Source: Amphibalanus amphitrite
Lineage: Eukaryota; Arthropoda; Thecostraca; Balanomorpha; Balanidae
Assembly (NCBI RefSeq): GCF_019059575.1
Contig: NW_024881848.1
Location: forward strand, 548,474-612,473
Direction of reading: 5' to 3'
Length of the DNA: 64,000 bases
Positions 29,201 through 32,200 of this stretch are shown piece by piece. The notes under the pieces are model-generated. The model saw only the letters and a list, made by a program, of their open reading frames with translations, was not told the DNA's origin and did not search any database. Positions within the stretch are counted from its first letter, which is position 1, and every line of letters begins with the position of its first letter. The position numbers were made by a program, and so were the translations under genes.

Positions 29201-32200
29201 CTAATCACCGCTCGTCTTCCTGCGGCGGTCATCACTCACGGAGCACCTGTGTCGTCCCGTCGTCTGACAGGCTGGCTCTGAGCCAATTCCCGACGTTCCC
29301 AGACGTCAGACAGGTGTCCGAGTCAAGGGTGCTGAATATACAGACACAGTTCGATTGGACATATCCAGGGTCGAGCGCAGCATGCAGGTGTTTCTGCTCG
29401 TTTGGGAACGGACGTCCGGCGTGTGTTCGCGACGGTCGATGTCTTCGAGGTCGTGCTGTCACCGAAATGTCATCGGATCGATCGAACCGGCTGTGCTTCC
29501 GGGAGTGGGCATCGGTCACGTCTCGAATGGTTGTGATTTCACTGATTCTAGCTCAATGTCAAACGCCTAGGGATGAGCCACCTGCACTTCAGGTCCGGAT
29601 GTGCATAAGATCACGGAACGTGCCTTTCCTGAGATATCGTCAGTCAATGTCATGTTTGCCCACGAAGCTGGGTCTTTGAAGATCACCCTCAACATCTCAA
29701 TACATGTGTGTAATGTGTGATGCGTGCAACCATCAATACACCTAGCATAAGTGTGAGCCCGAGCCCTATCGGTCCTGTATCGTCACTTTGTTAGTTTCCG
29801 TGTATCTCCATAAATAACAACTAGCACTGTGTCACATCTCACATCACATCTAGCTCTGTTGCCTTTGCACCAACACCTTGCACCCGACCCTTGCACCCAC
29901 CCCAGTTTGTGCACCCGCTGCGTTCGCGATTGATGTTGCTAACAGACCTCCTCCACAGGCACGACCTCTGCCGCCGGCGCAACAGCGGAAAGTGCACCAA
30001 GGGAACGGCCGGTACGTGGACGTTTGTGTGTCTGTGTGTGCCGCTTCTGTACCATGCCGCGCTGCAGCGTGGGACAGACGACCTCCAGTGACCTGACCTG
30101 TGGTGACCTTTGACCCTCAGTTACCTTGAATTTGAAAGACTCTTGATGACCGCTGACCGCTGACTTGCAGTGACCTCTGAGCTGCTGCGACTTGACCTGC
30201 GCAACTTTGACCTACAGAGATCGCCTCGACTTCGGTGATCGCTTACTGTGACTGTGATTAACCCCGACCGAGCCTGTGTGATTCTCCCTTCGCTCAGCTA
30301 ACATTTCTCCCCTGTGAACTCGGAGTGAGCGTGTGCTCACCGCCGCCTTCTCTTTGTCTATACGCTTCCGCTTTTCGGTGATACCGAAGACGGCCGCCGA
30401 AGCCGGACTCAGTCTTCTGCTTTACTGTGACTGGCTCCAGCCAGTCCCTTCCCCATCTTGACTCTCCTTCACTCAGCTCCGACTGTTTTACAGGCTTGAC
30501 ATGTGCCGAAAAGACTTTGATCGTGGACCGTGTAACACGGGGACGGCCGGTAAGACGGGACACAGGACGGCGCAGTTCGCACTGGGGATGACGGGGCACG
30601 GATGGACGAGACCACGCGCCGCGCGGACGCACACTGCACGGGGTGACCCGCGGATCTGACCTAGCACTGACCTAGGGCTGACCCAGGGTTGACCGCGACT
30701 GACCGGCACTTTTCTTCAGCTCACATCTCACTTTTACTCTCTGACCTGCACTACTTTGGTCCTCCTGCGTCTTCTCTCTGCCATCACATACCTGCAACTG
30801 TCTGTCTGATCGAAAACGTGTGCATAAATGCCTGGGATTTATATTGCATGAGTTTTTGACGAAGCTGCTAAAGTCGCATTTAGACTCAAGAGCCGCTGCG
30901 CATAACATCATAACCGCATGAAGAATGATGTAACGAATAAAGCTGGTAAAGCTGCTGAACTGCCGATGCACGAGTGCTAATAAATTAACTTCTGCTTGGC
31001 TTTCAACCACAGGAAACAGCAACCGACGAATAACAACGCTTTTAGGGATAAATTAAACTCATATCTAACTCCCGACCTACCCGATCCGCTTCGCTTGGCT
31101 TTGCCTGGCTCGTCCTCTGACCTGACCGTGACTGAACGCACAGAGGAGTCACGCAATGACGCTAACGCCGCGGCACGTGACTGCGAAACGCAACCGTCCT
31201 CCGTGACGGCAGAGTAACGTGACGTGACGACTGCCCGACGCGAACGTAACGACCGACGGTCGGCAGTGCAGCGTCACGTAACGTAACGCAAAGAGTGCGC
31301 AGAGATCGGCTCAGCCGTGACTGCTATAGTGCTAATTTCTAAAACGTGCGCCATTTGAGTTTGCGACATTGCAGTTTGGTATCAAATGTACAATTAAAGT
31401 TGCAATGCAATCACGAAAGAATAGGAGCGTCTTAATTGCATGCTATTAAATTTGAATTCTTGTAAATAATTAAAGCATGTTGTTCAAACGGAACTTTTTA
31501 TTTCGTTTCTCGTTATTTGTGTCTAATGTCTTTTGCTTTATGCTTTTCTTGACATTGGTGTGCAATATGTAACTACAAATGTCGCTAAAAGTCACTAAAT
31601 TCCTACTTACGAGGACATTAACTTACAAAATAAAGCTAAATTGATTCTCACCTTCTGTGCTAATAAAAGATTTATTAAGGCTCATGATCGATATGTAAGT
31701 GCTGAAACCCGCCCGAGCCACGTCTAACCCCACCGTCCGACGCAGGTTTCGCGTACGTGGGCGGAGCGTGTGTGGTCAACAAACGACTCACCAAGGTGAA
31801 CTCCGTGGCAATCGTGGAGGACACGGGCGGCTTCTCGGGCATCATCGTGGCCGCCCACGAGCTGGGTCACCTGCTGGGGAACGTGCACGACGGCTCGCCG
31901 CCGCCCTCCTACCTGGGAGGACCGGGAGCCAAACGATGCCGCTGGGAGGAGGGTTTCATCATGTCCGACCTCCGGCACACCGAGAAGGGATTCAAGTGGT
32001 CCCCGTGCAGCCTGGAGGAGTTCGACCACTTCCTCAAGTGAGTGGGGGGGGGGGGACAGAGAAAGAGAGAGAGAGAGAGAGAGAGAGAGAGAGAGAGAGA
32101 GAGAGAGAGAGAGAGAGAGAGAGAGAGAGAGAGAGAGAGAGAGAGAGAGAGAGAGAGAGAGAGAGAGAGAGAGAGAGAGAGAGAGAGAGAGAGAGAAAGA

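What the first reader, a model, noticed from the sequence alone, without database searches (positions are those of the whole stretch)
29959..30549. Mutually exclusive exon pair swaps the disulfide loop beside the protease active site
Seen: two homologous exons (53 and 56 bases) stand 482 bases apart. They have the same entry and exit phases and nearly identical 3' ends. They encode HDLCRRRNSGKCTKGTA and LDMCRKDFDRGPCNTGTA. The reading frame tolerates exactly one of them. Known: in ADAMTS catalytic domains this spot is the DLC...C segment just before the zinc helix, a loop near the primed subsites whose conformation differs between ADAMTS structures. Inference: one gene makes two proteases differing only in a basic or mixed-charge loop at the substrate groove, so splicing could switch substrate choice. 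I know of no described exon pair of this kind in an ADAMTS gene.
Basis: partly seen in the sequence, partly recalled or inferred. Interest (0 to 1): 0.88.

Follow-up and report, generated by a model that had tools for sequence, protein, structure and literature searches.

The report
Splicing swaps a protease's active-site loop
A barnacle gene carries two alternative versions of one tiny exon that change only the loop beside a protease's active site, and the same pair appears in insects and other crustaceans, so one gene probably makes two enzymes with different behaviour.

Summary
Exons 29959-30011 (53 nt, HDLCRRRNSGKCTKGTA) and 30494-30549 (56 nt, LDMCRKDFDRGPCNTGTA) share phases; the frame stays open only with exactly one of them. 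Profiles made without barnacle proteins find these two as the best hits in the window. The gene is the Amphibalanus orthologue of Drosophila sol narae (Sona), an ADAMTS-like protease that cleaves Wingless. In 13 of 16 a/b protein pairs that I chose and compared, predicted isoforms differ, gaps aside, only in this loop. Two insect gene models misjoin both exons, a then b. Type a also occurs in an ostracod, krill, amphipod and lobsters; named chelicerate proteins seen have b-type ends. The exon encodes the ADAMTS S2' loop, which closes over the active site in some ADAMTS structures. Loop a is nearly invariant and strongly basic; loop b is variable and mostly less basic. Published residue numbers suggest that the studied Sona-PA carries loop b, leaving loop a untested. 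The isoforms exist as database predictions; my literature searches found no paper describing the switch. The effect on activity is inferred; no RNA data were available.

The parts
24078..24189 (+). exon with furin-type site (RRRRRR) and start of the catalytic domain
   Evidence: matches homologues; boundaries read from sequence
25273..25402 (+). catalytic-domain exon
26588..26730 (+). constitutive exon C, donor CAA|gtgagt, upstream of the switch
29959..30011 (+). alternative exon a (53 nt): basic S2' loop HDLCRRRNSGKCTKGTA
   Evidence: same loop in the A. amphitrite predicted protein P0122
30012..30493 (+). 482-nt intron between the alternative exons
30494..30549 (+). alternative exon b (56 nt): S2' loop LDMCRKDFDRGPCNTGTA
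   Evidence: 16 of 18 residues the same in Pollicipes P0027
31746..32037 (+). constitutive exon E with the zinc-binding HELGHLLGNVHDG helix
32810..33041 (+). exon F, ADAMTS cysteine-rich region (PF17771 in P0122)
34359..34518 (+). exon G, end of the cysteine-rich region
36238..36617 (+). threonine-rich exon, partly matched by Pollicipes P0027; boundaries inferred
41039..41206 (+). last coding exon with stop codon, C-terminal cysteine motif; start approximate
   Evidence: (85% to P0027)

Best explanation
This is a pair of mutually exclusive exons in the barnacle sona gene. Each exon encodes a complete S2' loop: the Asp that aligns with a calcium ligand of ADAMTS4, a Cys pair, and the exit towards the strand before the zinc helix. 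Splicing in a gives a strongly basic loop. Splicing in b gives a loop one residue longer, with no net charge in the barnacle. Including both or neither shifts the frame and should be removed by nonsense-mediated decay. Because this loop moves over the zinc in ADAMTS4 and blocks the cleft in latent ADAMTS13, the switch most likely changes how readily the enzyme opens and what it accepts on the primed side. The order a then b probably dates at least to the pancrustacean ancestor. SHOWN: the exons, their frames, their conservation, the predicted isoform pairs in other species and the loop's place by alignment. INFERRED: use of both exons in barnacles, NMD, and the change of activity or specificity.
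Confidence: 0.8

Rival explanations
1. The exons are mutually exclusive, but the loop swap hardly changes catalysis; the pair persists for regulation, for instance as a frame-based switch that sends double-included or skipped transcripts to decay.
For: Both wrong combinations give early stops. Loop b tolerates much variation between its cysteines. Sona-PA alone can rescue viability in part.
Against: Loop a is nearly invariant and its charge is kept, which a purely regulatory exon would not need at protein level. The loop lies over the active site in relatives.
Confidence: 0.15
2. One of the two exons is a dead or cryptic duplicate in this barnacle and only the other is used.
For: The A. amphitrite predicted protein P0122 contains only a and the Pollicipes protein P0027 only b.
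Against: Both keep splice sites, frame and the family signature. Exon b keeps 16 of 18 residues between two barnacles, and both types are conserved in other arthropods.
Confidence: 0.04
3. The exon pair is a chance resemblance or an assembly duplication.
For: The locus occurs twice in the assembly.
Against: The second copy is the same stretch, both exons included, on another contig, not the source of the pair. The exons are only 29 of 53 identical, far from a fresh duplication, and each matches its own orthologous type.
Confidence: 0.01

Closest known systems
Drosophila sol narae (sona, CG9850)
   Same: Orthologous gene by homology (several matching records bear the name 'sol narae'); secreted protease with prodomain, catalytic and cysteine-rich regions; Drosophila proteins of both loop types were found.
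   Different: Published work used the PA isoform; its residue numbers fit loop b. No passage that I saw describes the loop switch.
ADAMTS4/5 S2' loop (residues 322-330 in ADAMTS4)
   Same: Same position after the DLC motif, a disulfide within the loop, conserved calcium-ligand Asp.
   Different: ADAMTS4 has 4 residues between the cysteines; here 7 (a) or 8 (b). No alternative exon for it is described in the passages seen; Asp328 is not conserved.
ADAMTS13 Ca-binding loop 180-193 with the gatekeeper triad
   Same: Same alignment position; shows that this loop can block the cleft.
   Different: No disulfide there in ADAMTS13; Arg193 aligns with the Ala just before the exon's end; the triad is reported as unique to ADAMTS13.
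Insect serpins with alternative reactive-loop exons (recalled; only a search listing seen)
   Same: Splicing exchanges a functional loop of a protein of the protease world.
   Different: Inhibitors, not proteases, and not homologous.

Membership tests
mutually exclusive exon pair | homologous tandem exons of like length and equal phases | tested here: met
   53 and 56 nt, same phases, 29/53 identity
mutually exclusive exon pair | both or neither breaks the frame | tested here: met
mutually exclusive exon pair | orthologues give isoforms that differ by this exon alone | tested here: met
   13 of 16 pairs that I chose, gaps apart; database predictions, not RNA tested here
mutually exclusive exon pair | RNA shows exactly one exon per transcript | not testable with these tools
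   no RNA data held
mutually exclusive exon pair | competing intron RNA structures (seen in some cases) | tested here: inconclusive
   intron duplex energies no better than shuffles, one genome, blunt test
sona orthologue | best matches are arthropod sona proteins across the catalytic and cysteine-rich regions | tested here: met
   77% to Rhodnius 'sol narae metalloprotease isoform X4'; 97% to A. amphitrite P0122 over the searched region
canonical ADAMTS | M12B catalytic domain with HExxHxxGxxHD | tested here: met
   exon E; Pfam Reprolysin families in P0122
canonical ADAMTS | ADAMTS cysteine-rich domain (PF17771) | tested here: met
canonical ADAMTS | thrombospondin type 1 repeats | tested here: not met
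   no such Pfam match in P0122, P0001, P0006 or P0207; so filed as sona-type, ADAMTS-like

The most novel reading that the evidence does not exclude
An ancestral, single, basic S2' loop (as in the chelicerates seen) was duplicated before the pancrustaceans diverged and its roles were divided. Exon a kept the basic core and became nearly frozen, as if fixed by one unchanging partner such as an acidic glycan or substrate. Exon b lost charge and diversified. Splicing thus sets which substrates or what latency a Wnt-processing protease has, and the published Sona biology covers only the b half.
Probability: 0.4. Interest if true: 0.85.

Novelty: new variant of a known kind. Interest (0 to 1): 0.72.

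Why it matters
Mutually exclusive exons are well known, but my searches turned up no described case that exchanges the gate loop beside a metalloprotease active site. The pair seems to have survived since the pancrustacean ancestor. It makes a clean experiment possible: two natural enzymes that, in the insect pairs compared, differ at 8 positions and one residue of length at the cleft. If the residue numbering is a fair guide, the fly literature on Wingless cleavage tested only one of them.

Tried and rejected
Dead duplicate, chance and assembly duplication: rejected. A third exon copy in the interval: none found. Competing RNA structures: intron duplex energies matched shuffles (17, 53 and 36 of 60 as low; of the upstream intron only the last 700 nt), a blunt test in one genome. 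Intronless barnacle paralogues as proof that a b-containing mRNA was retroposed: their loops are b-like with 18 residues, but the tree does not place them firmly, so this is only suggestive. I had no model coordinates to measure the distance to zinc, only secondary structure and fold matches. The counts '5 distinct a loops among 138 pattern matches against 43 b among 141' are biased, because ranked rows by likeness to a type-a loop; alone they are 5 of 42 against 41 of 138, and random samples of 42 b matches give 20 distinct on average and never fewer than 12 in 5,000. The a rows are mostly insects while b includes chelicerates, so taxon sampling also favours this contrast. A few proteins give more than one match. 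Of the 237 proteins (fragments and paralogues) lacked the GTAGFAYVGGAC anchor and were not typed, and the script there put the three CTTGTA loops under b; I count them as a. Absence of a in chelicerates rests on the listed rows only. Whether a third genomic copy of the gene exists (P0122 lies on a contig of another length) was not tested, as the tool did not complete. Papers: 10 searches; one search listed 20 of 35 papers, 12 of 38 and 15 of 62, so some were not seen; one likely relevant paper was not held. Seen as passages: PMC12758981, PMC4989167, PMC7608652, PMC6706451, PMC9620172, PMC4885070, PMC6071210; abstract, plus a term search without hits: PMC6646336; term search without hits: PMC6362049, PMC3303723; the rest as listings.

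Full report
What is there. The window lies in an 807.6-Mb assembly that I take to be Amphibalanus amphitrite: one of its contigs has the same length, 657,405, as the contig of an A. amphitrite protein with the same paralogue loop, and the window gene is 97% identical to A. amphitrite protein P0122 over the searched region. The gene runs on the + strand from about 5.2 kb to 41.2 kb. Several of its close relatives are named 'sol narae metalloprotease'. Pfam finds reprolysin and ADAMTS cysteine-rich domains but no thrombospondin repeat in the four proteins scanned.

The exon pair. Exon a (29959-30011) and exon b (30494-30549) both complete a codon begun by two bases of exon C and leave one base for the next. 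Spliced between 26588-26730 and 31746-32037, either alone gives an open frame. Both together stop 51 nt into exon E; with neither, the frame stops near the start of exon F. The splice sites of exons C, a, b, E, F and G are AG and GT. Profiles made without barnacle proteins recover these two places, far above everything else in the window and above 60 shuffles of the interval.

Conservation. In three homology searches (120 of 159, 120 of 613 and 120 of 498 hits listed) the sona-type loops that could be typed fall into two kinds: a, 17 residues ending CTKGTA or CTTGTA, and b, 18 residues ending CNRGTA or, rarely, a close variant; fragments and paralogues were left out (see Tried and rejected). 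I compared 16 pairs of one a and one b protein that I chose from the listings; 13 differ, gaps aside, only at 8 positions inside the loop: Rhodnius, Zerene, Colias, Pieris, Tribolium, seven Bombus species and Temnothorax. Members of these 13 pairs are listed on contigs of equal length, hence presumably one gene. In 11 of the 13 the loop's one-residue gap is the only gap column; Zerene has 11 and Bombus affinis 125. The other three pairs (Homarus, Nasonia, Ostrinia) involve a fragment, other differences or two species. Gene models of Ephemera and Exocentrus contain a and then b in a row, evidently misjoined, which shows the genomic order. Type a also occurs in an ostracod, krill, an amphipod and lobsters. 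The named chelicerate rows seen carry b-type ends; the Limulus model holds three such copies. The pair is thus probably at least as old as the pancrustacean ancestor; that date is an inference from this spread.

Two different regimes. Loop a shows 5 sequences in 138 pattern matches and a core charge of +5 in 136 of them; loop b shows 43 in 141, with +1 in 103. The sampling bias and a rarefied check are given under Tried and rejected. The 8 chelicerate loops listed join b-type ends to a basic core (+2 to +4), which suggests, but does not show, that the ancestor was basic and that a kept this trait.

Which form has been studied. The Drosophila paper studied Sona-PA, one of five FlyBase isoforms, and numbers Trp344 and Glu475. 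That spacing, 131, equals that of the D. sechellia b protein (Trp344, Glu475); 18 of 18 Drosophila a proteins that I measured give 130 (not every Drosophila row was measured). If the numbering refers to PA, PA has loop b; and if the later work used the same form, the enzyme shown to cleave Wingless (abstract) has loop b too and loop a has not been tested. The first paper also reports that expression of Sona-PA gave about 36% or 23% normal adults among the rescued mutants, according to driver, which argues that a is not strictly needed for viability.

What remains open. No RNA data were at hand, so use in barnacles and tissue pattern are unknown. The effect of the swap on activity is inferred from position, not measured. 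Searches for a description in print found none, in a library that lacks most subscription journals and with capped lists.

Noticed in passing
L005-L014 (G000 contigs C19, C90, C16, C329): A group of single-exon sona-like genes (open frames of 598-652 aa) with b-like loops, partly clustered; a close relative occurs in Pollicipes (P0031). Possibly retrocopies that then multiplied.
   Followed up: partly
window 55546-57102 (+) and 58908-60449 (-): Two intronless amino acid permease genes in inverted arrangement (PF13520).
   Followed up: partly
window 48290-53983 (-): Open frames on the minus strand, one with ankyrin repeats (PF13637), perhaps parts of a TRP-type channel gene (name recalled; the other piece scanned had no Pfam match).
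   Followed up: no
P0024 (Limulus polyphemus): Gene model with three successive copies of the loop together with part of the preceding strand, all with b-type ends: a separate duplication or an assembly fault.
   Followed up: no
G000:C2323:1-43355 (L015-L019): Short contig that repeats the locus; 3,707 nt align without a mismatch, so it is probably redundant assembly.
   Followed up: partly
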